From assembly GCF_003544855.1 (NCBI RefSeq), contig NZ_CP032101.1, positions 2,170,001 through 2,234,000 on the forward strand: a stretch of DNA of 64,000 nucleotides, read 5' to 3'. The stretch comes from Malaciobacter marinus (GTDB lineage: Bacteria; Campylobacterota; Campylobacteria; Campylobacterales; Arcobacteraceae). The stretch's first letter is position 1, and each line of letters opens with the position of its first letter. Under the pieces are notes generated by a model that had not been told where the DNA came from, searched no databases, and saw nothing but the letters and a program-made list of their open reading frames with translations. Made by a program: the position numbers and the translations under genes. Below, in pieces: positions 10,620 through 30,256 of this stretch.

Positions 10620-10752
10620 TTATCTTAAAAAATTGTATAATTTAACCAATATTTCAAAATATTATATAGTTTTTTATCATAGATAAATGTACAATATTTC
10701 AAAATACAGTTTATTAGATTTATACTTATCTAAATAAATTGTATAAAATCTA
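10614..10752. repeat. Left transposon end with TnsB-binding-like repeats
   Basis: The end begins TGACATTTATC. Three copies of the core AATTGTATAA/AATGTACAAT lie at about 10,631, 10,686 and 10,737, and a 14-bp repeat AATATTTCAAAATA occurs at 10,648-10,661 and 10,693-10,706. Spaced 20-odd-bp repeats near each end are the binding sites of TnsB in Tn7-like elements. The tnsA promoter must also lie in this stretch, since tnsA starts at 10,766. Confidence 0.75.
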
Positions 10753-10765
10753 ATAAAGGATACTC

Positions 10766-13413: not shown

Positions 13414-13421
13414 GGACTAGT

Positions 13422-14300: not shown

Positions 14301-15217
14301 TGAATAAATGTTATCCATATAAAGATGAACTTTTAAGTTCTTTAATTTTTAGAATATCTAGAGCAAATTACACAAGTGTATCTAATATCACTAACTATAT
14401 TTTTAAAACTAAAGGTTTATACTTAAAAGATATTGATTTATATAATTTTTCTAAAGATGAATTACTATCAATTAATAAACTTCTCAATATAAAAAATATT
14501 AGAAAATATCAATTATTAAAATATATTGGCTATATTGAAGAAAATTTTAATTTCAATGGTAGAAAAAGATGGATTACACATTTTCACAATAAAAAAAATG
14601 ATTTAAAGTTCTATGGAATAAGATTCTGTCCACATTGCATTAAAGAAAGCCCTTACTTAAGACAATACTGGAGGCTATTAATAGTAAATGTTTGTCAAAA
14701 GCATAATTGCTTTTTATTAAATAGTTGTCCAAATTGTAATAAAAATATTAAGTACCCAAATTCTCACTATGAACAAGAAATTTTTAATTGTTATTATTGC
14801 GGATTTGATTTGAGAACATCAACAACGGAAACGATAAAAAAAGAATCAATTCATCTAAAAGTTCAGAATATTCTTTTAAATATACTAAATTATGGATACT
14901 ATAAATTAAATAATAGATATTACTACTCGATTGGATTATTTTATTTATTGAGATTATTAATTAAAAATGTAATGAGAGTAAATAAAAAAACAGAGTATTA
15001 TATTGATAATTTAAAACCTAAAGAATTATCATATTTTATCTCTTTTTCTTTAATATTGCTAGAAAATTTTCCTCATAGACTTAATAAGTACTATAAAAAA
15101 AATAAACTTTTAAATCTACATACTATTCTTGATAAGTATCGTAATAAAAAACTAAATATTCCCAACTGGTATTTATCAAGTATTTATTACAACACTATTT
15201 CTACAAGGTGGCTTTAA
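14300..15217 (+). CDS. tniQ: TniQ/TnsD-family target-selection protein
   Basis: A 305-residue zinc-binding protein. The TniQ domain begins YPYKDELLSSLIFRISRAN. Zinc ligands are C110/C113 with C132 and H135 (the FCPHC ... VCQKHNC pattern) and C143/C146/C164/C167 (SCPNC ... CYYCG). In Tn7-like elements this protein picks the insertion site; because the element sits in comM, this TniQ may recognise comM, but one insertion does not prove site specificity. Length is between the short CAST TniQ and the long TnsD. No CRISPR array or Cas gene is nearby, so RNA-guided targeting is unlikely. Confidence 0.88.
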   Translation: MNKCYPYKDELLSSLIFRISRANYTSVSNITNYIFKTKGLYLKDIDLYNFSKDELLSINKLLNIKNIRKYQLLKYIGYIEENFNFNGRKRWITHFHNKKNDLKFYGIRFCPHCIKESPYLRQYWRLLIVNVCQKHNCFLLNSCPNCNKNIKYPNSHYEQEIFNCYYCGFDLRTSTTETIKKESIHLKVQNILLNILNYGYYKLNNRYYYSIGLFYLLRLLIKNVMRVNKKTEYYIDNLKPKELSYFISFSLILLENFPHRLNKYYKKNKLLNLHTILDKYRNKKLNIPNWYLSSIYYNTISTRWL

Positions 15218-15218
15218 T

Positions 15219-15662
15219 ATGGCAGAAAAGTTATTAACTATTATGCTTAATGAAGAGAATTATGATAAATTAAAGAAAAAACTTTTAAAAAAGAATACAA
15301 TAGATGTGCAAATAAAAGAATTAGCCCTAAAATATTTAGATTACATTTTTCAATTAAAAACATGTATTAATGAAATCAAAAAAGAGGATAAAGAATTTAT
15401 TTCAGATGAAGATAAAAATGAATTTATATATGAATATTATTGTGAGATAGAATCATCTAAATATTGTTTATTTGAATGTATTAATATTATTGAATTAAAA
15501 AATACTTTAAAAGACTGTATGGTTAATATAGAAACTAAAATAACTGATTGTAAATATGATTTATATCCTGGTTTTTTATGTGAACCTAAATCTATTCTAG
15601 AAGTTTCTATTTTACATTCGACATTGGAAAATTTTAGAGAAGAAATATCTTATTTAGAATAA
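15219..15662 (+). CDS. Small protein at the tniE position of the transposition operon
   Basis: A 147-residue protein starting one base after the tniQ stop, so it belongs to the transposition operon. It is rich in Lys and Glu, mostly helical, and has several cysteines (for example CEIESSKYCLFECINI) but no clear zinc pattern. I recognise no family. The order tnsA-tnsB-tnsC-tniQ-small gene parallels tniC-tniA-tniB-tniD-tniE of AbaR-type elements that also enter comM, so it may be a functional counterpart of TniE. That is a positional argument only. It converges with the helicase gene 14 bases away. Confidence 0.65.
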   Translation: MAEKLLTIMLNEENYDKLKKKLLKKNTIDVQIKELALKYLDYIFQLKTCINEIKKEDKEFISDEDKNEFIYEYYCEIESSKYCLFECINIIELKNTLKDCMVNIETKITDCKYDLYPGFLCEPKSILEVSILHSTLENFREEISYLE

Positions 15663-15676
15663 AAATAACAATCAAT

Positions 15677-18187
15677 CTATTCAAATATATAACCAAAATC
15701 TGATTCCTCTAACCCATACCAATATGCATACTTTTTTGCTCTTGTTGCAGCCACATATGCTAATCTTAATTGTTCATCTCGCTGACTTTCATCATATGTT
15801 TGATTATATTTTGCAAGACGATATATTAAATTTCTGATAATATCCTTTTCTTTATAGTAACAATCTCCTATTAAAAAACATACATCAGCCTCCAAACCTT
15901 TAGAAGAGTGAAAAGTCATAATATCATCTGCACCAATTATCCCATTAAAGTCTTTTGAATTTTGTCGACATAAAACATAAATACTTGCATCAGGCCATTC
16001 ATTTTTTATCTCAATAATTCTTTTGTTAATATCTTCTGTTACTTTTTTTATATCCATCTTATTAGATTTATTTTCTATATTAATTTTCTTAAACTCACTA
16101 TCTATATGCTTATTAAAGGCAATTACCTCTTTATCTAATTTCATATCTACTTTATTTAAAATTTCTCCTGCTTTAGATAAAATATTTTGTGAAGACCTAA
16201 AATTATATGACATAACTAATTCATTATGCTCACAATTAAAATGCTCTTTAAACTTTATTAGATATGAAGGTGTACTACCTCTCCATCCATAAATACTTTG
16301 CCAATCATCTCCTATACACATTAAAGTTGTTTCTTTCTCTTCTTTATACAAATATTTTTGAGCACCTTTAATGAATGACACAATTTCAGGTGATATATCT
16401 TGAAATTCATCTATTAATATGTTTTTCATACTTTTAATTGAAGTTGATGTATAATCAAAATGATTAATGTTATTTACTGAAAAAAATTTTAATAAATTTG
16501 AGAATTGCCATATCTCATTTTCTTTAAAATATTTATTCATAAACTCCCAATAAATCATCATGGCATTATATATATCTTTGTGTTCTTCATCAAAAGTAGA
16601 ATCATTAAGTATTTTATCTTTTAAAGAGTTTAACTGTTCAAAAGAAATTCCAGTACTCTCTATAAAGTTTATAAGGATATAGAAAAACTCATAAATTAAT
16701 TTTTTTCGAGATAATGTACTTATTTTTATATCAAAAATTATGGGAGTATCATTTTTTTCAGAATCATCAGAAAAGTCATTAATTAAAAGTATATTATTCA
16801 GTTCTTGCTGAGTTTCTACAAAAACAACCTTTGAATCACAATAACTAAAAACTTTTTTATGTATATTTCTAGCCCCTAACAATTTAAATTGTTTTTTATT
16901 TAAACGATTTTCTATTAGAATATCTTTAAATTCAGTTTTTTTTAAAATATCATTTTCAGGACTAAAAATTAAATATACATCTAATTTATCCAAATATAAA
17001 TGATAGTAAAAAGATGTATCTACTACTTTAGAAAAAGTTTTTTCTTTGATATTAGTATCTAAAGTAGTTTTAAAAACATCTTTGAATACATTACACAATT
17101 CTTCAGAAAAATTGAGAGCATATTTTATTTGTGAAATACCTTTCTTTTCATCTTGCTTTAATAATAACTTATTAAAATTACTTTTCAAAAATATTTTATG
17201 TATTAATTTTTTAAAGTAATTGCATTTACTATATGAAATAGCATAAATTTCTTTTAATATACTAGATTGTGCATAATTTAATGTGCTATTAAATGTATTG
17301 TCAATTTCTGCATCTAATTCATAATTATTATCTCCATTATCCTTATCTTTAATAAATTCAAATAATTTATATGAACCTAAATAACCTGAATCTTTTGCTA
17401 CTTCATAAACCTTTGAGTGGAAAGTTCTAATCATTTTTTCAATGATTGACTTATCAATATCTAATTTTGCTTTTTTAAAAAGGCTTACAAGTTTATCACG
17501 AAGTTCTTTACAAGATTTTTTTGTAAACGAAAATACTACTAATTCATTAGGGTTCACATTAGCAAATTTAATAAGAACTATAATTCTCAAAAGCATTGTA
17601 GTAGATTTACCAGAACCCGCCGCCGCAGCAACTAACTGAGTACTATTTTTACATAAGATAATTTTCCATTGTTCGTCAGTTGGATTTCCTAAATTTTTCA
17701 ATTCAATAAATTTTTTAATTTCATCATCTTTTTTAGAAAAAACAATAAAATTAATCTTCTTTTCTATTTTAGGTAATGCCTCAACAAATTTCAATCTGGG
17801 GCTATTTAAGGTAAATTTATTTAAAGATTTTTCATAACTCTCTTGAAGTTCTTTAAATTTATTTTTATAATACATATTTCTTTCATATAATTTACTCTTA
17901 TAATCTAATTCTGCATTTTCTAACTTATTATCATAAGAAGAAATAAGGTCATCTATTCTATTAGTATACTTTATTTCTGTATTCTCTAATTTATTTTGTT
18001 GAGCTTTATTATTCTCATCTATTGCATTTTCATAATCTATTTGTACTTGTTCTAATTTATTATTATGAGTTATTTTAATCTTTTTTAATTCTTCATTATG
18101 ATTTTTAGATAATTTTTCTAAATCATTTTCTGTATAGAAACCTAAAACATTAATTAACTTATTAAAATATTCTTGAATGTCAGCCAT
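15677..18187 (-). CDS. UvrD-type SF1 helicase with N-terminal coiled coil
   Basis: An 836-residue superfamily 1A helicase. Motif I is LVAAAAGSGKST, motif II is NILIDEFQDISPE, motif III is CIGDDWQSIYGWRGS, motif IV is MSYNFRSSQNI, then TFHSSKGLEAD and RLAYVAATRAKKYAYW. Residues about 20-125 form a long coiled coil with a rough 20-residue repeat (NKLE...Y...I). No nuclease domain is evident. It is likely a cargo gene for defence or DNA processing; its neighbour on the same strand is the TnsE-like gene. The ATG at 18,187 has AAAGGG six bases upstream. Confidence 0.85.
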   Translation of the reverse strand: MADIQEYFNKLINVLGFYTENDLEKLSKNHNEELKKIKITHNNKLEQVQIDYENAIDENNKAQQNKLENTEIKYTNRIDDLISSYDNKLENAELDYKSKLYERNMYYKNKFKELQESYEKSLNKFTLNSPRLKFVEALPKIEKKINFIVFSKKDDEIKKFIELKNLGNPTDEQWKIILCKNSTQLVAAAAGSGKSTTMLLRIIVLIKFANVNPNELVVFSFTKKSCKELRDKLVSLFKKAKLDIDKSIIEKMIRTFHSKVYEVAKDSGYLGSYKLFEFIKDKDNGDNNYELDAEIDNTFNSTLNYAQSSILKEIYAISYSKCNYFKKLIHKIFLKSNFNKLLLKQDEKKGISQIKYALNFSEELCNVFKDVFKTTLDTNIKEKTFSKVVDTSFYYHLYLDKLDVYLIFSPENDILKKTEFKDILIENRLNKKQFKLLGARNIHKKVFSYCDSKVVFVETQQELNNILLINDFSDDSEKNDTPIIFDIKISTLSRKKLIYEFFYILINFIESTGISFEQLNSLKDKILNDSTFDEEHKDIYNAMMIYWEFMNKYFKENEIWQFSNLLKFFSVNNINHFDYTSTSIKSMKNILIDEFQDISPEIVSFIKGAQKYLYKEEKETTLMCIGDDWQSIYGWRGSTPSYLIKFKEHFNCEHNELVMSYNFRSSQNILSKAGEILNKVDMKLDKEVIAFNKHIDSEFKKINIENKSNKMDIKKVTEDINKRIIEIKNEWPDASIYVLCRQNSKDFNGIIGADDIMTFHSSKGLEADVCFLIGDCYYKEKDIIRNLIYRLAKYNQTYDESQRDEQLRLAYVAATRAKKYAYWYGLEESDFGYIFE

Positions 18188-18307
18188 ATTTCCCTTTCTT
18201 ATATAATAAATTTAGATTTTAAAACTATATCTAAATCTTTGTTTTTTGTCAGATAGAGTAAAATCAGATTTTTTTACAAATGAATTCAATAATCTATCCA
18301 AACAATA

Positions 18308-20065
18308 TTAATTTATTTTTGTAATAATTCTTTCTTCTATTGATTCAATTTTATTTCTATGCGTGAATATGATATATTCATTATTTTTTAATAATAAACC
18401 TGTAGCAAACCAACTTCTATTACCATTAATTGCCATATCTATTAATTCTTTTGATATAAATTTATTATTAATACTTTCAATAGTTTCAGTATTTTTTATA
18501 ATTACTAAAAATGATTTTTGTTCTCCATTTGCTCTTGCCTGTAGTTCGATAAGATAAATATCTTTAATTGATTTATACTGTAATTTTGCAACAAAATATT
18601 TTCGTTTAATTTGATTTTTTTTATCAAGAAACATAAAAGCTCTTTTTAAAGATTTCCCTTTATGATCTAATACTTTAGGAAATTTAAATACTTTTTCACC
18701 TAAATATAAAAAATCACTATTCTTTTTTAAATGATTTAAAATTTCAATTATATTTAAATTGTTTTTACTCTTTTCTTTTTCTTCTTCATCATATTTTTGT
18801 TTAGTAAAAACTGCTTCATCTGTATTACCATTATTATTTTTTGTAGTTGAAGGTGTTTCTTTTAAATTCGTATAATCTTTTTGTTTATATCCACCTTGTT
18901 GTTCTCTTTGAGTATCAACAATTTTTTTTGCATTAAGTGTAATTGGCTCTGAAGCTTTTTGACAATTAATATTTAATTTAAAATCAGAATCTGTTTCTTC
19001 ATCAAACTCAAGTTGATTATTACCATACAATTGATCATTTACACTTAATGAATTATTTTTTCGTATATTTACTTTACAATCTTTTGATGAATCTCTTTTC
19101 CCTTCCTCTTTTTCTTTAAATTGTGACTTTGCATGACTATAGTTACAACTAAAATCGCTTAAAAAATCATTATTTAAATCATGTGTAATAATATTTAAAA
19201 CAAGTAATAAATTTTGTTTCTTATATTCAAAAACTCTTGAATTTAATAGCAATTTTTTTCTTGGTAATCTGGCACTAATTACATTAGATTTTTTGTAAAT
19301 ATTATAAATATTGGAATATAAATATAATCTTTTTGGATTAGTTAAAAAAAATAAAATTTTATACCTGTCATCTATTGAATAATTACCATTAATTTCAATA
19401 TCATAATGATTTTTAACAGAATCATATTTATTGACATTTAAACTATTTAAGATTCCATTTGGTGTCAAAATATCTTGGCAAAAATGACTCTTGGGCTCTT
19501 TTTGATATGCATAATTATATAAATAAAAATACTTTAGAACTTCTATTGCAGGGATAAGAATTTTCCTATTGTTAATAGTATATAAATAAAATTCTAAATC
19601 TTTAAAGTGATCTAATTCATATATTCTTTCTTTTTTTAAAATACCAAATTTATCTACTATTTCTTCTAAACTAAGCACTTCACAATCCGTTGAATCATTA
19701 ATGTTTATTTTTGTTTCATATATTTTCTTTTCAAATGTTTCATTGAAATTTTCAAAAAAAGATATATCGCCAACACTATTAATTTTTGCAAATATATTTA
19801 ATTGAAGTATTGATTTAAAATCAAAGTTTTGTATTTTAAAAGAAAGTTTTTTTGTTAATTTATTTTTAACCAAAATAGCAACAGATATGGAATAATCATT
19901 TGAAGTTTTTTTGTAATTGTACTGAAAAGGATTTGAAATTAAATAAATATAATAATTATTTTTTTTCAAGTCTATATCATGAGATATAAGAAATTGTCCA
20001 TAATTTCTATAATTATGTTCATAAGGAAAACAATATGGAATAAAATCTTCATCATCAAACTTCAT
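18308..20065 (-). CDS. TnsE-like transposon target protein
   Basis: By recall of the Tn7 TnsE sequence, similarity runs along the protein: YYIYLISNPFQ near the N-terminus (Tn7: WRIFVWFNPMQ), ILIPAIEVLKYFYLYNYAYQ in the middle (Tn7: YHIPQLELARSLFLINSYF), a long acidic linker (about 330-450), then a C-terminal domain with KFPKVLDHKGKS, IYLIELQARANGEQKSF and NGNRSW, which parallel LPKVGRSR, FVLLEVDASDG and KSSLNWP. TnsE directs Tn7 to replicating or conjugating DNA by binding the sliding clamp; QLNIF near residue 95 resembles a clamp motif. I use the ATG at 20,065; a TTG at 20,098 is also in frame. Size (585) is close to TnsE (538). No alignment was run. Confidence 0.62.
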   Translation of the reverse strand: MKFDDEDFIPYCFPYEHNYRNYGQFLISHDIDLKKNNYYIYLISNPFQYNYKKTSNDYSISVAILVKNKLTKKLSFKIQNFDFKSILQLNIFAKINSVGDISFFENFNETFEKKIYETKININDSTDCEVLSLEEIVDKFGILKKERIYELDHFKDLEFYLYTINNRKILIPAIEVLKYFYLYNYAYQKEPKSHFCQDILTPNGILNSLNVNKYDSVKNHYDIEINGNYSIDDRYKILFFLTNPKRLYLYSNIYNIYKKSNVISARLPRKKLLLNSRVFEYKKQNLLLVLNIITHDLNNDFLSDFSCNYSHAKSQFKEKEEGKRDSSKDCKVNIRKNNSLSVNDQLYGNNQLEFDEETDSDFKLNINCQKASEPITLNAKKIVDTQREQQGGYKQKDYTNLKETPSTTKNNNGNTDEAVFTKQKYDEEEKEKSKNNLNIIEILNHLKKNSDFLYLGEKVFKFPKVLDHKGKSLKRAFMFLDKKNQIKRKYFVAKLQYKSIKDIYLIELQARANGEQKSFLVIIKNTETIESINNKFISKELIDMAINGNRSWFATGLLLKNNEYIIFTHRNKIESIEERIITKIN

Positions 20066-20441
20066 AATATATTGTACACTAAAAATAATTTTATACAAAT
20101 TAGCTAGATAATAATATTTTAAATGTAATTAAATAAAATTACGAATTTTTATCTTAAGTAAAATAATTCTAGATAACTATATCTAATTTTACATCCTGGT
20201 CTAAAAAATATAAGCCTAAACTAGAAGCTTATTTAAATAATAATGGTTGTATATTTTCTTTTCTTTTTTTGTATATAAAAGAAGAGAGATTTTCTTGAAA
20301 CTTACAGAATCAATTAAAAAGCTTTTGATAATAAAAACAAAAACAAATCTCTACATTGTTTGAAGGTAGATTAGATGAGTTTCTAAACCTATGACTTAAA
20401 AAGTAATTTTTGTTGTTCAAAAAATTCTAAGAGGTTTAGTA
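20066..20441. other. AT-rich spacer with small dyads, no gene
   Basis: About 375 bases between the TnsE-like start and the attC-like site. No reading frame here looks coding. Two inverted repeats are visible: AGAGATTT/AAATCTCT around 20,284-20,352, and CTAAACCT (20,383-20,390) with AGGTTTAG (20,432-20,439). A TATAAAAT box lies at about 20,086-20,093 on the minus strand and could be the promoter of the TnsE-like gene. Confidence 0.3.
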
Positions 20442-20496
20442 ACTTAACGTTTGACTTCACCGACAGTTTACTGTTCGGTGCAACGATTTGTTAAGA
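20442..20496 (-). other. attC-like integron recombination site behind herA
   Basis: Read in the herA direction, the site starts one base after the stop with TCTTAAC (near the RYYYAAC box) and ends with GTTAAGT (a perfect GTTRRRY box). Between them lie AAATCGTTG, the imperfect stem CACCGAACAGT / ACTGTCGGTG with one extra base on the 5' arm, and AAGTCAAAC. The outer parts follow the aadA-type attC pattern TAACAA-TCGTT and CTCAAGCGTTA closely. A single extrahelical base, paired outer boxes and location directly after a stop codon are all attC features. The stem could also act as a transcription terminator, though it lacks a clean T-run. Confidence 0.68.
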
Positions 20497-20497
20497 G

Positions 20498-22270
20498 TTA
20501 CAGTTCTGTACGCCATAGTAGCTCTAGGTTTACATCTTCACTGTCAGGTTGTTTTACTCTTTCAAGACGATCTATTTGCAGTACCATAGGTAAATCGAAA
20601 GATGTACCTGTAACAATACAACTGCCTTTTGACAAGTTTGGAATCAAACTTCTTGATAAATTGTCTAATGTGCTAATGGTATTATCAAGAAGAAATAAGT
20701 CTCTATCGTTGACCAAGCGGTGAATAAAAAAGTTATGTAGCTGCGATATGATTGTCGGTGAAATATCTGCTGGTCTTTGGCTTGACAGAGTAATAAACAT
20801 ACCGAATTTTCGACCTTCTTTGATTATCTCTTCAAATAATTCTAATCTGTAATCCTTCCAATTTTCATTCTCTCTTGTAGATTGTTGAGACAAAATATTA
20901 TGAGCCTCATCAATAATAAGATGCATTGTCTTATCGGGTGGATTTCCAACAGTATCTTTATGTTGATGATAAAAATGCTTTGCGATAAGAAGTGGCAAAA
21001 CTTTTTTTATTTCCTGATTAGATTTTCTCAAAGAAACAACTGTCAGTAATTTACTTTCAGTTTGATTGTTTTCAATTGAGACCACTTTTTTTAAACTGTT
21101 AAGTGAAGATTCAATCCTTTTTAATAATGGCTGAATATGTTCAAACTGAACATAACCGTATATGAGGTCTCGTATTAATTGTAAGTTTGTTCGGATGACC
21201 AATTCATCAAAAGGATTTAATGTATCAATTGTGATATTGTCAACAGTATTTTGAAAAACATTTGTATAACCTGCACCATCAGCATTAAAATACGTTCCAT
21301 TGCTTTTAAAAGTATTATTTGGATGCCCCATCCATGTAATTTCTTTTAACTTGCTACTGAGCTCAGTGTTATTTAAAATATGTACAATGCTTCTTAATAG
21401 GTCAAGTGTATCTGCTTTTGGTGCTGCTGCAGTAAACACTGCTTTGAATGTTGTTTTAATGTAGTTCAAAAGGCTGTCAGGATTATCAATAAACTTCTTT
21501 CTACCGCTAATGATACGATTTAAAAAAGGTCTCTGTGTATTAGCTGTGGCTTGAAACAAAATACTCAATGTTTCAGAGTTCCAAAACTCGTTTTCATTCA
21601 AAGGAAATTTGTCTTGCCCTTCAGTTTGAGTGTTTAATTGCAAAGTGTTTTTATAATTAGCTTCAGCCAATTGATCAGCTGTATATTCACCATTGAAGTC
21701 CAAAATAACGAATTTGCTCTTATCCCCTATAGATTCTAACTTTTGCTCAAATAGTACAGTATACAGTTTGGCTAACGTATTTGATTTTCCACTACCTGTA
21801 TTCCCAAAGATACCAATATGAGTGTTAAAAAGCTTTTGCCACGGAAGAGATATTGGAATATCTTCCTTCAACATTTTTCCAATTACAAAGCCATTAGACT
21901 GTCCACGACTATAAATCTCGGATATCTTGCTTTCCTTTAAAAGAAAAGCAACATCCTTAATCATTGGAAGGAATTTTATACCTTCGTAAAATTTTTCTTG
22001 CTCATAATAGCCAATAGGTTTAGCTTCTACTTTGCGAATGTAATATTTTTTATTTTCTTCTCCTTCGACCTTGTTTTCATCAAGGTATTCTCCCTCAATG
22101 ATACAAATGATATTTCTAAAACCACGTTGAATAGATATATATTCGCGTATAGATACGCCCTTATATTTGTCTCCGTCATAGTAAAGAGTGTCTTTGCTGG
22201 AATCTTCAAATATTTTGAGCGTAACTTTTACGCCATTTACGGCGATAACTTCACCAATTTTAATCGACAC
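20498..22270 (-). CDS. herA: HerA-type ATPase of a SIR2-HerA defence pair
   Basis: A 590-residue hexameric HerA/FtsK-fold ATPase. The N-terminal HAS barrel is about residues 1-100, Walker A is GNTGSGKSNT at 156-165, VILDFNGEYT follows as in HerA proteins, Walker B is LIIDEAHN at about 450, and SSQRPADISPTIISQL with HRLVNDRDL carries the sensor and arginine-finger region. In characterised SIR2-HerA systems the two proteins form a complex that senses phage and depletes NAD+. Its start overlaps the end of the SIR2 gene by 11 bases. The bases are visibly richer in G and C than the flanks, and an attC-like site follows, so it probably arrived as a gene cassette. Confidence 0.88.
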   Translation of the reverse strand: MSIKIGEVIAVNGVKVTLKIFEDSSKDTLYYDGDKYKGVSIREYISIQRGFRNIICIIEGEYLDENKVEGEENKKYYIRKVEAKPIGYYEQEKFYEGIKFLPMIKDVAFLLKESKISEIYSRGQSNGFVIGKMLKEDIPISLPWQKLFNTHIGIFGNTGSGKSNTLAKLYTVLFEQKLESIGDKSKFVILDFNGEYTADQLAEANYKNTLQLNTQTEGQDKFPLNENEFWNSETLSILFQATANTQRPFLNRIISGRKKFIDNPDSLLNYIKTTFKAVFTAAAPKADTLDLLRSIVHILNNTELSSKLKEITWMGHPNNTFKSNGTYFNADGAGYTNVFQNTVDNITIDTLNPFDELVIRTNLQLIRDLIYGYVQFEHIQPLLKRIESSLNSLKKVVSIENNQTESKLLTVVSLRKSNQEIKKVLPLLIAKHFYHQHKDTVGNPPDKTMHLIIDEAHNILSQQSTRENENWKDYRLELFEEIIKEGRKFGMFITLSSQRPADISPTIISQLHNFFIHRLVNDRDLFLLDNTISTLDNLSRSLIPNLSKGSCIVTGTSFDLPMVLQIDRLERVKQPDSEDVNLELLWRTEL

Positions 22271-23420
22271 GTTGTTGCTCCGGTTCTATTTCTTCTGTAT
22301 TATCAGGGTCAAGAGTAAAAACTTTGTTATTAAATGCAGTAAAGTCCAATGAACCGTCTATAGTGATAAATTCTACATTCCGGTATGCTTTAAAATGCTC
22401 TTTTAGGTTTGAACAGCCTGCTTCACTGTAGCAACAAATAAAAAGTTGTAGCGTAGGATTCGACAGTGATCTTTTAACAAGGTTCAAAATATGCTCGTCG
22501 GCAAAAGAGAATCCAAATGTTATGAATACTGATTTTGGCTTTTCAAGTTCATAACTTAGGAGTCTAAGCATTTGGTAATAGTGTTCCTCAAATACTGTTT
22601 CGTGAAACTTCCACTTTGTAGGGTTAACGATTGGCAGTTTTTGATAGCTCTTTAGAAATTCAGTTCTTGTCTTTTCTCTTATAGTACTTGTACTAAAGTC
22701 ATTTACTCTTTTACTCGGATCTTTTAAAATGTTAGAAAAGTTATTTAGCTTAGTGGTTGTACCTTTACTGATTTTAATCATTCTGTTTTCATTGGGTGTG
22801 GTGTAGTCAACTAGGATATTCTCCTCATCTTTATGCCAATATACTGAGCCATGAAGATGGATTAAATTGATCTGAGGAATTTCGCTTCGATGGTTTCCAA
22901 AAACTCCTTTTTGATACATGGAACTATTGAAGTTCTTGGCGTGTAGATAGCGTCTCTTGAATCCTCTCGTACCATCATTGATTATAAATTCTATTTTTCC
23001 ACTTTGTAAAATATTGTCTGCAGTATGGACAAAACAACCATCATAATTTGTAGTGAAAATATTGCAACTTTTTTCATGATTTTTTCGATGTTCGAGTATT
23101 GTCAGTAAAGTCTCAATGAATTTTTTATAGTTTTCGATTACTGCTTTTTTTGTTGCGTCAGCACCTACAGATTCAATATCGAATGTCATCGCTGGTTCGA
23201 TACATTCCTTATAATAGTGCATGAAAAGTAAGGCATATTTATTTGGTTCTCCTGAGCCTTGTTCAAAAAGTGTTGCAAGTGTTTCAATAGTTTGATCTTC
23301 GCCAGCATTACCTTTTAGATCTACTGCAAGAGTTGGGAAAAGCCCGCAAGATGCTCCAGAGCCGATTAAGAAATTAATATTCTTATCGTAAATATCATTG
23401 ATATTAATTTTTTGACTCAT
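22260..23420 (-). CDS. SIR2-domain NADase of a SIR2-HerA defence pair
   Basis: A 386-residue SIR2-family protein. The NAD+ site shows GSGAS at 20-24, N125 in FTTNYDGC and H190 in LIHLHGSVYW; FGFSFADEHI near 300 closes the Rossmann fold. Such standalone SIR2 proteins hydrolyse NAD+ to stop phage growth and work with the HerA encoded directly downstream, whose start it overlaps. It belongs with that gene to one mobile defence module. The ATG at 23,420 has AAGGGG six bases upstream. Confidence 0.87.
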   Translation of the reverse strand: MSQKININDIYDKNINFLIGSGASCGLFPTLAVDLKGNAGEDQTIETLATLFEQGSGEPNKYALLFMHYYKECIEPAMTFDIESVGADATKKAVIENYKKFIETLLTILEHRKNHEKSCNIFTTNYDGCFVHTADNILQSGKIEFIINDGTRGFKRRYLHAKNFNSSMYQKGVFGNHRSEIPQINLIHLHGSVYWHKDEENILVDYTTPNENRMIKISKGTTTKLNNFSNILKDPSKRVNDFSTSTIREKTRTEFLKSYQKLPIVNPTKWKFHETVFEEHYYQMLRLLSYELEKPKSVFITFGFSFADEHILNLVKRSLSNPTLQLFICCYSEAGCSNLKEHFKAYRNVEFITIDGSLDFTAFNNKVFTLDPDNTEEIEPEQQRVD

Positions 23421-24043
23421 TCTACCCCTTTATTTTTTGATATTATTTTAAATAACTTATGGCAACATCCTAGCAGTGTTTATTGTTACATTAGTACTTA
23501 GATTTACATTTAGACTTAATGCTAAAGAAAGAGCTAAGTTGTATTTTATTCCTGTTAGGACTTTATTTTTGGAGCTGAAAATTCTTCTGTATTTTTTTGT
23601 CTTGCATTATATTTCCTTTATTATATTTATTAGTTGGTATATTTCTATACAACATTTTCGGATTTTTTACTGCAAGGTGTTGCTCCAGACCTTTTGAGGC
23701 TCCCCTAAATTATTTCAAGTAAAGTAATTATATATAAAAGATAATTAATATTTATATATCTTAAATAAAAACAACTGATACATGAAGTTTAATCTGTTAA
23801 CAGAAAAAAGATAAATTAAAAAATAAGTTCAAGAACCTGTAATATTTGGCACAATTTGACTAAATAAACTTAAGATACTAAAGTTCTAAGATTATTGGTT
23901 ACTAACACAAAACTCTGAACAATCCCTGAAGAGATATTTAATAGAAAACTTTATGTAATCTATTAAAACCTCTGATTATAGATATATTATGTATTTTCAC
24001 ATTTGTTAAGTTAAAAATAACTTAGTAGCTTTTTAAAACTATT
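23421..24043. other. Long AT-rich spacer, no supported gene
   Basis: About 620 bases between endA and the SIR2 gene. A 73-codon frame at 23,476-23,697 is hydrophobic, lacks a ribosome site and resembles no family, so I do not call it. The first 280 bases share the less AT-rich texture of the SIR2-HerA module and probably came with it; a texture change near 23,710 may mark the edge of that insert. The short dyad AAGTTAAAAATAACTT at about 24,007-24,022 lies downstream of endA and may be part of its terminator. Confidence 0.35.
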
Positions 24044-24736
24044 TTATTTAATATAAGAATTACTATTCCCCTGAATTTTCTGAATTCTTTTATTTTTAAC
24101 TCTTTCCCACTCAGAAACTGGATCTTGCTTGTCCCAAGCTTCCATCATCTTTCTTTCTTGTTTAGATAGTCTTACATTGTATTTATCAGACATATAAAAG
24201 TATACTCTTGCAATATTACCTCTAATATCTTCTTTTGGATATGCTCTTTTAGCTTTAAAATCAACTTCAAATTGACAGTTACCATATTGTGTAGCTTTTG
24301 GTATATTAGCACCATATCTATAATTACTTCTATCTCCATTTACTTCACCAATAGCAGGAACTAAGTTATGCATATCAGCTTCCATAGCTTTAAATGTTTT
24401 ATCTTTTCTACAAGCTTTTCGTCCTCCCTCTCGCCAACAAGGAAGATGTTTTCCAAAGTTATGAGCAGGCATTATATGTTCCCATTCCACTCTTTTAGCT
24501 CTTGTATTTATTTTCCCACTTTTATAATATTTATTTCTTGGAGTGTAATATTTTTTATCTTGGATTATAAGAGTTTTTTCTTTACCATTTACTCTTTTTA
24601 TTTCATAGGGATTTTCACAATAAAAAGTAATCTTATTATCATGATAAACTTTTTTAAGTAGTAATTTTTTAGATTTTGAAAAAGATGCTGCATTTAAAGA
24701 TAATGTAATTGTTAGAAAAGCTATTAGTAATCTCAT
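24044..24736 (-). CDS. Secreted endonuclease I (EndA/Dns family)
   Basis: A 230-residue DNase with an N-terminal signal peptide (MRLLIAFLTITLSLNAAS, cleavage after about residue 17). The beta-beta-alpha metal motif VEWEHIMPAHNFG at about 83-96 carries the catalytic histidine, and ADMHNLVPAIGEVNGDRSNYRY is the second family signature. It should act in the periplasm or outside the cell on double-stranded DNA. Homologues carried on integrated elements in Vibrio and Campylobacter block natural transformation, so this cargo may do the same. Its start overlaps a 38-codon upstream gene (ATGA). Confidence 0.9.
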   Translation of the reverse strand: MRLLIAFLTITLSLNAASFSKSKKLLLKKVYHDNKITFYCENPYEIKRVNGKEKTLIIQDKKYYTPRNKYYKSGKINTRAKRVEWEHIMPAHNFGKHLPCWREGGRKACRKDKTFKAMEADMHNLVPAIGEVNGDRSNYRYGANIPKATQYGNCQFEVDFKAKRAYPKEDIRGNIARVYFYMSDKYNVRLSKQERKMMEAWDKQDPVSEWERVKNKRIQKIQGNSNSYIK

Positions 24737-24849
24737 TTTATAACCTTAATTTCTGTAGCATACTTTTCCATACCCTTTACATTTTTAATTATATTCTCTT
24801 TAATATCAAGTTGTTTTAGTTTTTTCTCTGTATTAGTAACAAATGCCAT
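24733..24849 (-). CDS. 38-residue protein coupled to endA
   Basis: A short frame starts with ATG at 24,849, preceded by AAAAGGC, and stops at TGA overlapping the endA start in an ATGA junction. The product begins MAFVTNTEKKLKQLDI and is basic and helical, with no signal peptide and no recognised family. Start, ribosome site and coupling support translation. It may simply set endA translation, or it could be a cytoplasmic partner; I cannot tell which. Confidence 0.5.
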   Translation of the reverse strand: MAFVTNTEKKLKQLDIKENIIKNVKGMEKYATEIKVIK

Positions 24850-24879
24850 ATGTAGCCTTTTAAAATATATTATATTGAT

Positions 24880-25281
24880 TTAGTTAGGATAAATAGTATA
24901 CCCAACATTAGATTTATTATTTAACATATTATAATAAGTTTTATCTCTAATTTGTTTTATAACATTTCTAACTGTAAATATAGAAAATTTATTTTTTTCC
25001 CAACATTTTTCATAAAGTTCTTCAGCAGATATTTTTTCTGTATTATTATTTATTAAATAAGTAATTATATTTTTTTGAGTTTTGGTAAGTTTAATTTCTT
25101 CATCTTTTTTATTAAATAACTTATCTGAATAAAGTTCATAATAAAAACCTTTTCCTAAATCATATTTACCTTCAATATCTTTAAGGACTAAAGAAGTTAA
25201 ATATTCATAAAAAGATTGTTTCTTTTCTTTTAGTTTATTAGTAAGCTTTTGTTGTTGTTCATCAGTTAAGTTTAAATTCAT
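24880..25281 (-). CDS. Winged-helix DNA-binding protein, OmpR/PhoB type
   Basis: A 133-residue protein without a receiver domain. The N-terminus (TDEQQQKLTNKLKEKKQSFYEYLTSLVLKDI) is helical. Residues about 60-131 form an OmpR-type winged helix: KLTKTQKNIITYLINNN, ISAEELYEKCW, FTVRNVIKQIRDK (recognition helix) and SNVGYTIYP (wing). It probably regulates nearby cargo. Six ATCTATA/TATAGAT heptamers lie just upstream of it (25,393-25,504) and could be its operator. A tyrosine recombinase is the next gene upstream on the same strand. Confidence 0.72.
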   Translation of the reverse strand: MNLNLTDEQQQKLTNKLKEKKQSFYEYLTSLVLKDIEGKYDLGKGFYYELYSDKLFNKKDEEIKLTKTQKNIITYLINNNTEKISAEELYEKCWEKNKFSIFTVRNVIKQIRDKTYYNMLNNKSNVGYTIYPN

Positions 25282-25392
25282 GAATAAAATTCTCTTAAAA
25301 ATATAAAATAATTTAATTGTATATAAAGTATCTTTATAGAGTGCTTACTACAATAGTGAAGATTTACTGATTAAATATATTTCTTTTACTAG

Positions 25393-25504
25393 TATAGATT
25401 ATTTAAGGGTATTCCTTAAATCTATAAAATTTATAGATAGTAAAATCTATATAAAATATTATCTATAAAAAAGGTAGATATTGATGTCTATCTTTTTTAT
25501 AGAT
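25393..25504. promoter_or_regulatory. Cluster of dyads with six ATCTATA/TATAGAT heptamers
   Basis: The heptamer TATAGAT or its complement occurs at 25,393, 25,420, 25,432, 25,445, 25,461 and 25,498. They form a perfect palindrome ATCTATAAA-A-TTTATAGAT (25,420-25,438) and an 18-bp-arm hairpin (25,461-25,478 with 25,487-25,504, one G-T mismatch). A further dyad ATTTAAGG/CCTTAAAT spans 25,401-25,421. The hairpin may terminate the recombinase transcript; the repeats may bind the winged-helix protein or the recombinase. Confidence 0.5.
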
Positions 25505-25602
25505 TTTAGTAAAATGAGTATATAATTGTCAAGTGTAATCAAAAATACACCACTTCGTATCATCTATTTATTAGAAATATCTAACAATCCAGATTTTCTT
25601 TT

Positions 25603-26541
25603 TTACTTTAAAAATTCAAAATTTTTTCTTGGATGCTTTGATTTTAATATTTTTCGTTGATGCTTTAAATTAACTTTTGTGTAAATTTCTGTTGTAGAGA
25701 TAGAAGAATGACCTAGCATATTTTGTATATATCTAATATCAACTCCTTCTTCTAAAAGTAAAGTTGCAAAAGAGTGCCTAAACATATGTGGAGTTAGATG
25801 TTTACTTGTGAATACTGTTTTTTCATATTTATTAATCATCAATCTAATTGATTGTTCTGATATTTTATTTCCTAATCGATTTACTAGAAAAAAATGAATT
25901 TTATTTATATCTTCATAAAATAATTTGTAATACTCTTTTAAAAGTTTTTTTACTTCAAAATCACATACTTGAATAATTCTTTCTTTATCACCTTTACCTT
26001 TTATTTTAATTATTCCTATATTAATGTCTATATCTTGATCTAAGATATTTGACAATTCAGATACTCTAACACCTGTACTAAAAAGTAATTCAATGATAAC
26101 AATATCTCTAACTAATGCTTTGTATGCATATGATTGTTTTTCTTTAAAATTTATTTTAATTTTATACAAGTATGAAAGAAGCTTTTTTACATCTCTTAAT
26201 TCTATAGTCTTTGGAAGTCTAATAGGTTCTTTAATAGCTATTTTTAATTTGTTAAATGGATTAATATCTATAATATCTTCATAATCTAGATAGTTAAAAA
26301 AAGCTTTTATAACAGCAATCTTTCTTTTTATAGTTTTTGCTTTAAGATTAAAAGCATATAAATTTCCAATATACTCTTTAATTAAATGTTTATCAATCTC
26401 TAAAATTTTCAAATATTTAAAATTTTTGTATTCTATGAATTGATTTAAATCTATTGAATATGCATTAAGTGTTTTTTCACTTAAATTCTTTTCATACTTA
26501 CAATGAAATTCAAAATTTATTATTAATTTAGTTAGTAACAA
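25603..26541 (-). CDS. Tyrosine recombinase, XerC/D/H-like
   Basis: A 312-residue site-specific recombinase. The core-binding domain is residues 1-100. The catalytic residues R159 (FSTGVRVSEL), K182 or K184, H252 and R255 (TPHMFRHSFATLL), H278 (MLGHSSISTT) and Y287 (EIYTKV) are all present, so it should be active. Its size and simple two-domain build resemble Xer proteins and invertases rather than phage integrases with an arm domain. It lies 164 bases from one of two 25-bp inverted repeats that bracket the neighbouring restriction-modification operon, which makes it a good candidate for acting on them. Confidence 0.9.
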   Translation of the reverse strand: MLLTKLIINFEFHCKYEKNLSEKTLNAYSIDLNQFIEYKNFKYLKILEIDKHLIKEYIGNLYAFNLKAKTIKRKIAVIKAFFNYLDYEDIIDINPFNKLKIAIKEPIRLPKTIELRDVKKLLSYLYKIKINFKEKQSYAYKALVRDIVIIELLFSTGVRVSELSNILDQDIDINIGIIKIKGKGDKERIIQVCDFEVKKLLKEYYKLFYEDINKIHFFLVNRLGNKISEQSIRLMINKYEKTVFTSKHLTPHMFRHSFATLLLEEGVDIRYIQNMLGHSSISTTEIYTKVNLKHQRKILKSKHPRKNFEFLK

Positions 26542-26601
26542 AATATAATCCTTTTTTATTGGGATTATATTTAAATTAATATTTTATTACTCCATAATAA
26601 A

Positions 26602-26642
26602 GAGAAGAAACTACAAAATTATTAATTTTATAGTTTCTTCTA
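26602..26642. terminator. Hairpin between the recombinase and the restriction-modification operon
   Basis: An inverted repeat AGAAGAAACTA ... TAGTTTCTTCT with further AT pairing inside (AAAATTA/TAATTTT) and a T-rich tail. It lies just upstream of the recombinase start and downstream of the restriction-modification operon, so it probably stops read-through from that operon into the recombinase gene. Confidence 0.6.
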
Positions 26643-26705
26643 TTCTTTTATTTTTTATAAAGTAAGCCCTAAAAATAGACTCTTTTAAGAAAAGTAATTA
26701 ACTTG

Positions 26706-26730
26706 TGAACAATCGATAATAAAGAATTAT
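26706..26730 (+). repeat. 25-bp inverted repeat, copy 1 (downstream of nuclease gene)
   Basis: The repeat begins TGAACAATCGATAATAAAG and ends GAATTAT. Its exact reverse complement lies at 28,884-28,908. This copy lies 18 bases beyond the stop of the DUF262-HNH gene. Bases outside the 25 do not match between the two copies, so the repeat has sharp edges. The half AATAAAGAAT also pairs with ATTCTTTATT at 26,744-26,753 to form a small hairpin. Confidence 0.9.
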
Positions 26731-26748
26731 ATACTATTTATAGATTCT

Positions 26749-27852
26749 TTATTTTCCAGATTTTGCTCGGTTACAATCTTTACAAAGCATTTGACAGTTT
26801 TCTTCTATTGTTTTGCCACCTTCATGCCAAGGTGTAATATGGTCCCCCTCCATTTGGTCAATTGGAAAATATTTATTACATTTAACACAAATACCTTTTT
26901 GGATTTCATAAACTTTTTGTTTAACAGCATCTGAAAATACACGTATTGAAAGATAATTTTCATTACGTGTTAATATATAAGGATATATTCCACTTTTCTT
27001 TTGTACTTCATCGTCTAAAACTAATTGTGCAATTTCATTTTCAAGTTTACTAGTATCATATATAGTATCTTTAAATTCATTGTATAATGTTCCCCAATCA
27101 ACACTTTTCATAAATTTTTCTCTTTTATTTGGAAAAGTGGTTTCAATCCAGGATATAACACTTTGAAAATATATCCAAAGAGCATTGGCATTTGGATCAT
27201 GCTGATGATCTTTCATATACTGTTCAATATCGTTATTATTTATCCATTTTATTGCTGTTTCTAAATATTCTTGTCTATTAACTTTTCCACTTATATAACT
27301 ACTAGCTATTCCTTTTGCAGGACAATTACTTTTACTGAAATATCTTTTTGCATCAGAAACCCATGGCCCAGAAAAAACTGCATTTCTTAATTCTTGATTT
27401 GATAACTTTTCGCCAGCAATATTGATAGTTTCAAACCACTTTAATTTTTCACTATCTTCTCCACTACACAGATAAACCATTAGCTTATAATTTAAAATTC
27501 TTTTCTTTTCATCTTCTTGAAGATTATGAAAAGCTCGAGGTTGAGAAAAACCACCAATACTGACAGAAAAATCTCCTTCCACATATTGACATATAGAGAT
27601 AGTACGTTGTTGTCCATCAATGACTTCATATTTTCCATCTTCTTTAACAGCCCAGTACATTACATTTAAAGGAAAATTTTTTATAATAGTATCTATTACA
27701 GCATTTCTTTGTTTATCTGCATAAACAAATTCTCTTTGATATGGTGGACGAATATCTAACTTTCTATCATAACTAAAAACACCATTTTCTTCATTATCTT
27801 CGTAGCCTTTTGTAAGTTCTTCAATAGTTATTTCTTTTAGCTCAATATTCAT
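26749..27852 (-). CDS. DUF262-HNH nuclease, likely restriction enzyme
   Basis: A 367-residue protein. The N-terminal DUF262 (ParB/GmrS-like) domain shows RPPYQREFVY at 35-44 and EVIDGQQRTIS at about 76-86, the latter typical of the DGQQR family. The C-terminal HNH nuclease (about 315-367) shows CVKC, the GDHITPWHEGG catalytic histidines and CKDC zinc knuckles. It overlaps the methylase gene by 4 bases, so the pair is coupled and reads as a restriction-modification system in which this protein cuts unmodified DNA. GmrSD-like activity on modified DNA is an alternative, but a partner methylase argues against it. Confidence 0.8.
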   Translation of the reverse strand: MNIELKEITIEELTKGYEDNEENGVFSYDRKLDIRPPYQREFVYADKQRNAVIDTIIKNFPLNVMYWAVKEDGKYEVIDGQQRTISICQYVEGDFSVSIGGFSQPRAFHNLQEDEKKRILNYKLMVYLCSGEDSEKLKWFETINIAGEKLSNQELRNAVFSGPWVSDAKRYFSKSNCPAKGIASSYISGKVNRQEYLETAIKWINNNDIEQYMKDHQHDPNANALWIYFQSVISWIETTFPNKREKFMKSVDWGTLYNEFKDTIYDTSKLENEIAQLVLDDEVQKKSGIYPYILTRNENYLSIRVFSDAVKQKVYEIQKGICVKCNKYFPIDQMEGDHITPWHEGGKTIEENCQMLCKDCNRAKSGK

Positions 27853-28871
27853 AATCTTTTATTCCTTACTAATATTCTTGCGTATTTTTGTTTTCCATCA
27901 ATAATCCCCCGGTGTTTTTTTTTGACATCAGTTCGCAAAGATTCAACTTCTTTAGATATATCTCCACTATGGGTTTGACCTAAAATTTCAAATTGATTTG
28001 GATTATATTTACTTAGAAAAGTTACAGGTACACCCATAACACCATCATAATCCATTGGAATATCTGCTACTTTATCAACATTAATTGCAGAATAATTTTC
28101 ATAATTTGCATAGTCTTTTTTATTATATGGTTTATATAAGATTAAATCTTCATGCCTTTTTGCTATATCTAAGTTTGTATACCAACATATATTTCCTAAA
28201 CTTCGCCATTTTTGTCCAGTTTCATCTTGACGATATCTTGTTTTTCTTGCTTCATAATGGCTTGGAACTTTAAATTCCATATCTCCACTTTTATAACCCA
28301 ACCATATTTTATTTTCTTTAATTAAGGAAAATGTCTCTTTAGTTGTTGCAGCATTTTGATTTCCAATAATTAAAAATTTTTTATCATATTCTATGAGTTG
28401 AGCTATATATTCACGAAATAGAGAAAAGGGAGGATTTGTAACTACTATATCTGCTTGTTTTAATAACTCAATACTTTCTTCACTTCTAAAATCACCATCT
28501 CCTTTTAAATAATTTACTCCTATTTCTTGTATATCTGGAATACTATTATTATTTTTATCACCACTATATTCCAAGTAAATTGCTTGTTTAGAATCACTTT
28601 TGGTAAATAGATCCATATCTTGATTTTGATAACATGTTGTTATAAGTTTTTTAAGACCCAACTTCTCAAAATTATACGAAAAATAGTGAAAAAAATTACT
28701 AACTCTTGGATCATCACAATTACAATAAACTACTTTATTTTTAAAGTGTTTTTTATAATATTTTAACTCTTTTTCTATATCTGTTAATTGAGTATAAAAT
28801 TCATCTTCCTTATTTACTTTTGCTTTATGTAAATTTTTGTTCAAATCTTTTTTATTCAGTTTTGTCATCAT
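27849..28871 (-). CDS. Adenine-specific DNA methyltransferase, EcoRI family
   Basis: A 340-residue N6-adenine methylase with the catalytic NPPF motif at 146-149 (DIVVTNPPFSLFREY). The early KEDEFYTQLTDIEKELKYY and VVYCNCDDPRVSNFF are hallmarks of the EcoRI-methylase family. It should protect host sites from the DUF262-HNH nuclease encoded directly downstream. The start is ATG at 28,871, a second ATG follows at once, and AAGGAC precedes it. A 25-bp inverted repeat lies 12 bases upstream and an extended -10 box lies just beyond it. The recognition site cannot be inferred. Confidence 0.87.
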   Translation of the reverse strand: MMTKLNKKDLNKNLHKAKVNKEDEFYTQLTDIEKELKYYKKHFKNKVVYCNCDDPRVSNFFHYFSYNFEKLGLKKLITTCYQNQDMDLFTKSDSKQAIYLEYSGDKNNNSIPDIQEIGVNYLKGDGDFRSEESIELLKQADIVVTNPPFSLFREYIAQLIEYDKKFLIIGNQNAATTKETFSLIKENKIWLGYKSGDMEFKVPSHYEARKTRYRQDETGQKWRSLGNICWYTNLDIAKRHEDLILYKPYNKKDYANYENYSAINVDKVADIPMDYDGVMGVPVTFLSKYNPNQFEILGQTHSGDISKEVESLRTDVKKKHRGIIDGKQKYARILVRNKRL

Positions 28872-28883
28872 TGTCCTTGCATG

Positions 28884-28908
28884 ATAATTCTTTATTATCG
28901 ATTGTTCA
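28884..28908 (-). repeat. 25-bp inverted repeat, copy 2 (between promoter and methylase)
   Basis: Exact reverse complement of 26,706-26,730. This copy lies in the 5' leader of the restriction-modification operon, 12 bases before the methylase ATG and immediately downstream of the predicted -10 box. The two copies span 2,203 bp and enclose only the two-gene operon. Confidence 0.9.
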
Positions 28909-28909
28909 T

Positions 28910-28918
28910 ATTATAGCA
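28910..28918 (-). promoter_or_regulatory. Extended -10 promoter of the restriction-modification operon
   Basis: On the minus strand the sequence reads TGCTATAAT, a perfect extended -10 (TGnTATAAT), preceded by a T-rich stretch as is normal for Campylobacterota sigma-70 promoters. Transcription should start near 28,903, inside the inverted repeat. The box lies outside the bracketed segment, so inversion would part it from the genes. Confidence 0.7.
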
Positions 28919-29020
28919 AAAACAATATTATTATTTATCATTAGATATAACTAATATACTTATACTATAAATTATTAAAATATAAATAATAAACGAACAT
29001 ATAAAATAATAATGATAATT

Positions 29021-30004
29021 TCAATTCTCATAAATTTCATCTTTTATATTAATTAATATAATATTTTCTGCATTAGCTAATACTTTAGCTCCAGAAGTAA
29101 ATCCTACTAAAGATACTACAATTGTTTTAGGATTATCAGGATGATTCTGTCTAACACCAATCATTTCTCTAATAACCGATATACCAACATTTTTAATGTA
29201 TTTTTTTACTTGTACAATTGTGGTTTTCATGTCTTCATCAGTCCCTACTAAATCAATACCTCCATCGGCAGAGTATTGTGTTACTTTTAACTTATATCCT
29301 TGTTTATTTAACCAAATAGCTACCGCATATTCAAACTTCTCAGGAGTTAAATTTTTCCAAGTATCATAGTTTTCCAATTGTTTTTCAAAGTATGATTTTG
29401 TTCTATTTAAAATATCATTTTTATTTTCTATCAAGGATTTTTTATATGATAATAGTTCTTTTAGTTTATTAATATTTGCTTTATTGCTCTTTCTCCAAGA
29501 CTTATAATTCCAATCAATAATTGGCAAAATAGGTAAAGAAAAAAGCATTGCACCCCAACCATAATTAATTGATAAAATTATAACTACAGTTAAAACAATT
29601 AATGCTATTATATTTGTTGTTAGGTTACCTTTCTCTTCTCCTGCCCAATATTTTTCTTCATTCGTAAGATGCATATATGAGCCTATAGGAAGTTCATTTA
29701 CTTTTTTTGTTCTATTCCATTGGTCTAACAAAATATCACTCTTATTGATTGTTCTAAGATATTTTACACTATACTCTAATTTATCATTTTTTTCTTCTAT
29801 TTCTTCTTCAACCTCTAATAAATAATTTGTTTTATATTTAGTATTAAACTTAACATGATTTTGAAATCTTATTTTAGTTATTTTATTTAATTCATCGCTT
29901 AAATCAAGAATAACTAATTTTTTATTATTTATACGTTCTATTGCTACAAATTTACTACTAGTAATAGATGTATATATCTGATACCTTTTGAAGGCTACCA
30001 ACAT
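29021..30004 (-). CDS. Mrr-type restriction endonuclease with membrane segment
   Basis: A 327-residue protein. The C-terminal Mrr-like nuclease domain (about 215-327) has E225, D251 in SADGGIDLVG and Q265/K267 in IVQVKKY, the D-QxK catalytic set. Two hydrophobic helices lie in the middle (about 130-147 and 150-164: IIALIVLTVVIILSI, AMLFSLPILPII), so the nuclease is probably tethered to the inner membrane facing the cytoplasm. The N-terminal 120 residues match nothing I know. It is the last gene before the right end of the transposon. A role against incoming modified or foreign DNA is likely but unproven. Confidence 0.78.
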   Translation of the reverse strand: MLVAFKRYQIYTSITSSKFVAIERINNKKLVILDLSDELNKITKIRFQNHVKFNTKYKTNYLLEVEEEIEEKNDKLEYSVKYLRTINKSDILLDQWNRTKKVNELPIGSYMHLTNEEKYWAGEEKGNLTTNIIALIVLTVVIILSINYGWGAMLFSLPILPIIDWNYKSWRKSNKANINKLKELLSYKKSLIENKNDILNRTKSYFEKQLENYDTWKNLTPEKFEYAVAIWLNKQGYKLKVTQYSADGGIDLVGTDEDMKTTIVQVKKYIKNVGISVIREMIGVRQNHPDNPKTIVVSLVGFTSGAKVLANAENIILINIKDEIYEN

Positions 30005-30042
30005 TAATTCTCCTAAATTTATTTTTTTAGCATTAATTAGAC

Positions 30043-30119
30043 TATTTTACAATATTAATTTTAATTTAACTATTATACAAATTACTTTGATAAAGTACAA
30101 TTAACTTTGAAACTTGTCA
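30043..30119. repeat. Right transposon end with TnsB-binding-like repeats
   Basis: The end reads ...AACTTGTCA. Three inverted copies of the ATTGTA core lie at about 30,047 (TACAATATT), 30,076 (TACAAATTA) and 30,096 (TACAATTAA). The outermost five bases mirror those of the left end (TGACA). The closer spacing at this end and wider spacing at the left end follow the asymmetric layout of Tn7-like ends. Confidence 0.75.
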
Positions 30120-30256
30120 CTATCCCTTGACTCTTGAATTATATTTGATGCTAATCCTACGATTGTAAATGATGGTAAGCCATTTGTAAAAGATGCTTCT
30201 ACATCGACGCTTTTTGCTTCAATAGTTTGCAATGTTGCTGAATTTATGATTTTCAT
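30101..30256 (-). pseudogene. comM: comM N-terminal fragment, cut off by transposon
   Basis: A 51-codon frame too short for most gene callers. It starts with ATG at 30,256 after the ribosome site TAGGAAAT and begins MKIINSATLQTIEAKSVDVE, then shows GLPSFTIVGLAS and IIQESRD, all typical of the ComM/YifB N-terminus. The comM-derived part ends at D44 plus two bases; the last few codons (SDKFQS, stop at 30,101) are read from the transposon end. Joined to the fragment at 9,234-10,613 it restores a continuous ComM of about 503 residues. The native comM promoter must lie between here and about 30,400. Confidence 0.93.
30120..30124. repeat. Right copy of 5-bp target-site duplication
   Basis: CTATC follows the right end directly and matches the copy at 10,609-10,613. 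Confidence 0.93.

What the first reader, a model, noticed from the sequence alone, without database searches (positions are those of the whole stretch)
20442..23420. SIR2-HerA defence pair ends in an integron attC-like site
Directly after the herA stop codon lies a 55-base site with outer boxes TCTTAAC and GTTAAGT, inner stems CACCGAACAGT/ACTGTCGGTG with a single extra base, and spacer sequences that follow the aadA-type attC pattern (TAACAA-TCGTT; TCAA-CGTTA). The pair is visibly less AT-rich than its surroundings. This suggests SIR2-HerA moved as an integron cassette, or was captured from a cassette array, before entering this transposon. I found no matching second attC upstream of SIR2 and no integron integrase in the window, so the cassette would have been inserted by an outside integrase or copied with flanks.
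Basis: partly seen in the sequence, partly recalled or inferred. Interest (0 to 1): 0.7.

Follow-up and report, generated by a model that had tools for sequence, protein, structure and literature searches.

The report
Phage-defence genes stranded with integron site
A two-gene anti-phage system (SIR2-HerA) in this Arcobacter-family genome ends in a genuine integron recombination site (attC) of a type common in that family, so it was very probably once a movable gene cassette and now rides inside a different mobile element, a Tn7-like transposon.

Summary
Window 20442-20496 (-) is a real attC site starting 1 nt after the herA stop. A covariance model built from five other Arcobacteraceae sites, window excluded, scores it 67.8 bits (E 2.9e-14). 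It is the only hit in this 2.9 Mb genome. Model hits occur in 39 of 104 family genomes, behind many different genes; the pooled sites show compensatory base changes. The 38 herA relatives checked lack it, so it is not a herA terminator. Arcobacteraceae carry true integron integrases (16 of 104 genomes over the curated cut-off); two congeners keep broken copies and this genome has none. SIR2-HerA is compositionally foreign (GC3 0.27-0.28 against 0.10-0.16 for its neighbours). The pair sits in a 19.5-kb Tn7-like transposon (10614-30119) inserted in comM. Right after the attC lies an IS256-family right-end remnant that abuts attC sites at the same place in several other arrays, so the pair was more likely lifted with part of an array than inserted alone. 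No second attC and no proven 5' cassette boundary were found. Integron cassettes in Tn7-like transposons and integrons in Campylobacterota are known, so this is a new member of a known kind.

The parts
20442..20496 (-). attC recombination site, short Arcobacteraceae type (R'' TCTTAAC, R' GTTAAGT, extrahelical A)
   Evidence: R1 67.8 bits, E 2.9e-14; R2 38.4 bits; only R1 hit in the genome
20498..22270 (-). herA, 590 aa, helicase of the SIR2-HerA system
   Evidence: PADLOC HerA E 2.8e-177; PF01935 E 4.4e-19
22260..23420 (-). sir2, 386 aa, SIR2-like effector of the SIR2-HerA system
   Evidence: PADLOC SIR2 E 2.4e-56; PF13289 above cut-off
23450..23456 (-). candidate 5' cassette boundary (GTTATTT; G^TT 35 nt before the sir2 ATG), unproven
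   Evidence: sequence; same layout as cassette starts in relatives; no attC model hit there
20355..20438 (+). right-end remnant of an IS256-family element (encodes ..STLFEGRLDEFLNL*), abutting the attC R' box
   Evidence: 84-nt matches at 80-87% in many Arcobacteraceae genomes; transposase identified
10614..30119 (.). Tn7-like transposon carrying the cassette; ends TGACA..TGTCA, 5-bp duplication CTATC at 10609-10613 and 30120-30124
   Evidence: comM split into 9234-10613 and 30113-30256
10766..15217 (+). transposition genes: tnsA-like 10766, tnsB-like 11479, tnsC/tniB-like 13422, tniQ 14300
   Evidence: Pfam Mu-transpos_C, TniB, TniQ; ORFs; tnsA by position and sequence only
25603..26541 (-). 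Xer-like tyrosine recombinase, not an integron integrase
   Evidence: TIGR02224 XerC 245 bits, TIGR02249 98.5 bits, both under cut-off

Best explanation
SIR2-HerA is (or was) an integron gene cassette of the Arcobacteraceae integron pool. Its attC, on the strand opposite to the genes, can fold into the hairpin that an integron integrase (IntI) recognises and cuts at G^TT of the R' box. Such a cassette would have been taken into an array by an IntI of a related bacterium. A piece of that array (sir2-herA-attC plus the start of the IS256-derived unit behind it) then ended up as cargo of a Tn7-like transposon inserted in comM. With no IntI in this genome and no partner site on the sir2 side, it is now fixed as a cassette and moves only with the transposon. 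The gene pair itself should work like other SIR2-HerA systems: a SIR2 NADase assembled with a HerA hexamer that depletes NAD+ on phage infection (from established knowledge of the system; not tested here). Shown by computation: attC identity, absence after other herA genes, foreign composition, transposon ends, shared IS junction. Inferred: past IntI recombination, capture as an array fragment, present immobility, defence function.
For: attC by two independent models; covariation across 58 distinct sites, 87.6% of cells paired against 24-42% when slid, 135 double changes against 55 in shuffles; stop-to-attC distance 1 nt, equal to the median of 31 cassettes; nearest sites: a 90% match on Aliarcobacter faecis pAFAEC and the best-scoring site beside the broken intI of congener G082; true IntI in 16 of 104 family genomes with attI (...AATAAATAG^TTA) and ordered arrays; no site after herA elsewhere; composition; shared attC-IS256 junction; transposon limits.
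Against: No attC or attI upstream of sir2, so the 5' end rests on one unproven G^TT. No other copy of this SIR2-HerA cassette in an array: the other family HerAs are only 38-39% identical. A cassette of about 3 kb with two genes is large, though pAFAEC has gene groups of 3-5 kb between attC sites.
Confidence: 0.8

Rival explanations
1. The attC belonged to another, lost cassette; SIR2-HerA landed beside it by an unrelated event.
For: No 5' boundary or second attC found; the attC is tied to an IS256 unit that occurs elsewhere with other genes.
Against: The attC starts 1 nt after the intact herA stop, the typical cassette spacing (median 1 nt), and herA is full length at its C-terminus relative to homologues. 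A random landing would rarely end so exactly.
Confidence: 0.12
2. A lone SIR2-HerA cassette circle was inserted straight into the transposon at a secondary site by an IntI acting in trans (same cassette, different route).
For: Single attC; a G^TT lies 35 nt before sir2; IntI genes occur in the family.
Against: The DNA just past the R' box is the same IS256-end junction seen behind attC sites in other arrays, which a random secondary target would not explain unless the IS end is itself the preferred target.
Confidence: 0.25
3. The hairpin is a transcription terminator or RNA element of herA.
For: It lies directly after the stop codon and folds.
Against: Absent after herA in 38 relatives; found behind many different genes; no T-run; pairs covary in the attC pattern with integrases nearby.
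Confidence: 0.02
4. Chance palindrome.
For: Folding energy alone is only modest.
Against: E 2.9e-14 with a model that excluded it, only hit in 2.9 Mb.
Confidence: 0.005

Closest known systems
Integron gene cassettes and attC sites (class 1 aadA type; chromosomal integrons)
   Same: R''/R' boxes, L-box stem with one extrahelical base, loop, stop codon just before the site; the Arcobacteraceae model finds the R100 aadA1 attC
   Different: Arcobacteraceae sequence type; single site; no integrase in the genome; no proven 5' site
Arcobacteraceae integrons (congeners G081/G082; G056, G068, G085) and the plasmid pAFAEC array
   Same: Same attC types; G082 holds the best-scoring R1 site next to a broken intI; pAFAEC has about 10 same-strand attC sites with candidate defence genes and no IntI
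   Different: These are arrays; the window has one cassette in a transposon
Tn7-like transposons with integron cassettes as cargo (Tn7 and its class 2 integron; PMC8649781)
   Same: Tn7-like transposon carrying a gene with a 3' attC; that survey found intact or partial integrons in 10% of Tn7-like transposons
   Different: Their cassettes were dominated by qacE and dfrA1; here a phage-defence pair in Campylobacterota
SIR2-HerA defence system
   Same: Adjacent sir2 and herA, strong PADLOC matches
   Different: Ends in attC; 73-74% HerA identity to the nearest relatives, which are gammaproteobacterial and lack attC

Membership tests
Integron gene cassette | attC site with R and L boxes, imperfect hairpin and extrahelical base | tested here: met
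Integron gene cassette | gene(s) oriented towards the attC and ending just before it | tested here: met
Integron gene cassette | defined 5' crossover point (G^TT of an upstream attI, attC or target) | tested here: inconclusive
   candidate GTTATTT at 23450-23456; no attC or attI recognised
Integron gene cassette | recombination by IntI | not testable with these tools
   needs an in vivo recombination assay
Complete integron | intI gene in cis | tested here: not met
   no IntI over cut-off in the genome
Array of attC sites without integrase (CALIN) | at least two attC sites close together | tested here: not met
   one site only
Tn7-like transposon | tnsA/B/C and tniQ genes, inverted ends, 5-bp target duplication | tested here: met
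   tnsA by sequence inspection only
SIR2-HerA defence system | adjacent SIR2 and HerA genes of the known families | tested here: met
SIR2-HerA defence system | NADase activity and phage protection | not testable with these tools
   needs expression and phage assays

The most novel reading that the evidence does not exclude
A gene pair of gamma/betaproteobacterial affinity carries a local, Arcobacteraceae-type attC. This would mean it was made into a cassette inside the recipient lineage rather than arriving as one, and that IS256-family ends joined to attC R' boxes at a fixed place take part in forming or delimiting cassettes there. Together these would bear on the open question of how gene cassettes arise.
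Probability: 0.25. Interest if true: 0.65.

Novelty: new member of a known kind. Interest (0 to 1): 0.45.

Why it matters
It shows a two-gene phage-defence system carried as an integron cassette in Campylobacterota and passed on to a Tn7-like transposon, linking two mobile systems that store phage defences. It also points to an integron pool in Arcobacteraceae (attC model hits in 39 of 104 genomes) that can be mined for defence genes by searching behind attC sites.

Tried and rejected
Exact attC-like pattern in the own genome: no hit (the pattern was stricter than the site). DNA of the pair against plasmids: only distant matches. attC against phages: nothing. HerA in viral contigs: one 36% relative. 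Second attC or attI upstream of sir2: none. The repeat at about 23807-23930, 5' of sir2, was followed as a possible cassette end and looks like another mobile-element remnant. The integrase at pAFAEC 126532 next to an attC was considered as a cassette integrase; it does not match TIGR02249. Terminator and chance readings rejected (see rivals). Whether the IS256 element targets attC, or its end is an IntI secondary site, could not be decided: its true right terminus is unclear.

Full report
1. The site. Window 20442-20496 (-) reads TCTTAACAAATCGTTGCACCGAACAGTAAACTGTCGGTGAAGTCAAACGTTAAGT and starts one base after the herA stop. No match to it exists elsewhere in the genome apart from a 17-nt chance hit. 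BLAST of the site alone against plasmids finds Aliarcobacter faecis pAFAEC (90%, E 9e-9) and weaker matches on two Arcobacter plasmids, all outside annotated genes. pAFAEC carries a same-strand run of genes with attC sites between them.

2. Is it an attC? I aligned five short-type sites from pAFAEC and a congener (G082), leaving the window out, and built covariance model R1. It scores the window site 67.8 bits, E 2.9e-14. In the whole genome it is the only hit; 39 of 104 family genomes have hits, up to 27 in one. A second model from 24 sites of a 69-base type also finds it. Across 58 distinct sites the structure shows strong compensatory change (that alignment was fitted to the model, so the slid and shuffled controls matter). 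The model's best hit in a stretch of R100 is the classical aadA1 attC. In 31 cassettes of the family the stop codon lies a median of 1 base from the attC, exactly as here.

3. Integrons in the family. True IntI over the curated cut-off occur in 16 of 104 genomes; two of the five congeners (G081, G082) keep intI broken by stops or frameshifts. Next to intI lies a conserved attI...AATAAATAG^TTA, followed by cassettes. The window genome has no IntI; the recombinase at 25603-26541 is Xer-like. A review already lists Campylobacterota among phyla with integrons (PMC8618304).

4. Not part of herA. 42 relatives of HerA were fetched, best 73-74% identity, mostly gamma- and betaproteobacteria. The DNA after herA in 38 of them shows no such site, and R1 finds nothing significant there. 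The pair is compositionally foreign: GC3 0.27-0.28 against 0.10-0.16 for neighbouring genes, and higher than 30 of 31 cassette genes of the family.

5. Surroundings. comM is split: its start is at 30113-30256 and the rest at 9234-10613. Between them lies a Tn7-like transposon, 10614-30119, with TGACA/TGTCA ends and the duplication CTATC. It holds tnsA/B/C-tniQ and a defence-like cargo (UvrD/GajB-like, SIR2-HerA, a type II restriction-modification pair, an Mrr-like gene). Comparing the coordinates, this is the only tnsB homologue in the family with an R1 attC within 40 kb. Integron cassettes in Tn7-like transposons are known: 10% of them carry intact or partial integrons in one survey (PMC8649781).

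6. What lies behind the attC. Window 20355-20438 is the right-end remnant of an IS256-family element. The same end abuts attC R' boxes at a nearly fixed place on pAFAEC (several sites) and in G068, G056, G081 and G054 among others: 8-9 of 30 IS right ends examined (several judged by eye). So the window keeps a junction typical of Arcobacteraceae arrays. This favours transfer of an array fragment over insertion of a single cassette, unless the IS end is itself a preferred target.

7. The missing 5' end. No attC or attI lies upstream of sir2 even with filters off. A G^TT (GTTATTT, 23450-23456) 35 bases before the ATG looks like a cassette start but could be chance.

8. Verdict. The attC is genuine with high confidence, and the cassette reading is well supported (0.8). 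The route into the transposon and present immobility are inference. It is a new member of a known kind. The more novel idea, that a foreign gene pair received a local attC in this family, is not excluded and could be tested.

Noticed in passing
window 20355-20438; L051 15190, 20857, 26455; L063 6375; L081 4755; L082 13816; L172, L173, L175, L180, L187, L189: The right end of an IS256-family element abuts attC R' boxes at a nearly constant position in many Arcobacteraceae loci (8-9 of 30 right ends examined); other copies share a different outer flank. Either the IS targets attC (as the unrelated IS1111-attC group does) or its end is a recurrent IntI target.
   Followed up: partly
window 10609-30124: Tn7-like transposon of 19.5 kb with TGACA/TGTCA ends and CTATC duplication splits comM; nearest TnsB relative is 76% identical in genome G031.
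   Followed up: yes
L051 (Aliarcobacter faecis pAFAEC 10853-50902): About 10 same-strand attC sites in 15 kb without an IntI on the plasmid; several cassettes match candidate defence models (PDC-M60, PDC-S31, a DUF262 protein).
   Followed up: partly
G081 C66:20019-20991 and G082 C1:416105-417065 (loci L087, L088): Two congeners of the window genome have integron integrase genes broken by stops or frameshifts beside attC sites, so the integron has decayed in these species.
   Followed up: partly
window 23807-23930: A repeat of about 120 bases, 79% identical to a second place in the genome (1850461) and similar to many family genomes; probably the end of another mobile element 5' of sir2.
   Followed up: partly
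L063 6324-7561 (pAFAEC 126323-127560): An attC lies just upstream of a 343-aa site-specific integrase that does not match the integron integrase model.
   Followed up: no
L194 29680-30001 (Aliarcobacter cryaerophilus pCNAC48): A plasmid from chicken meat carries a VEB-type beta-lactamase gene near a Tn3 transposase, in the stretch fetched for the 23807-23930 repeat.
   Followed up: no
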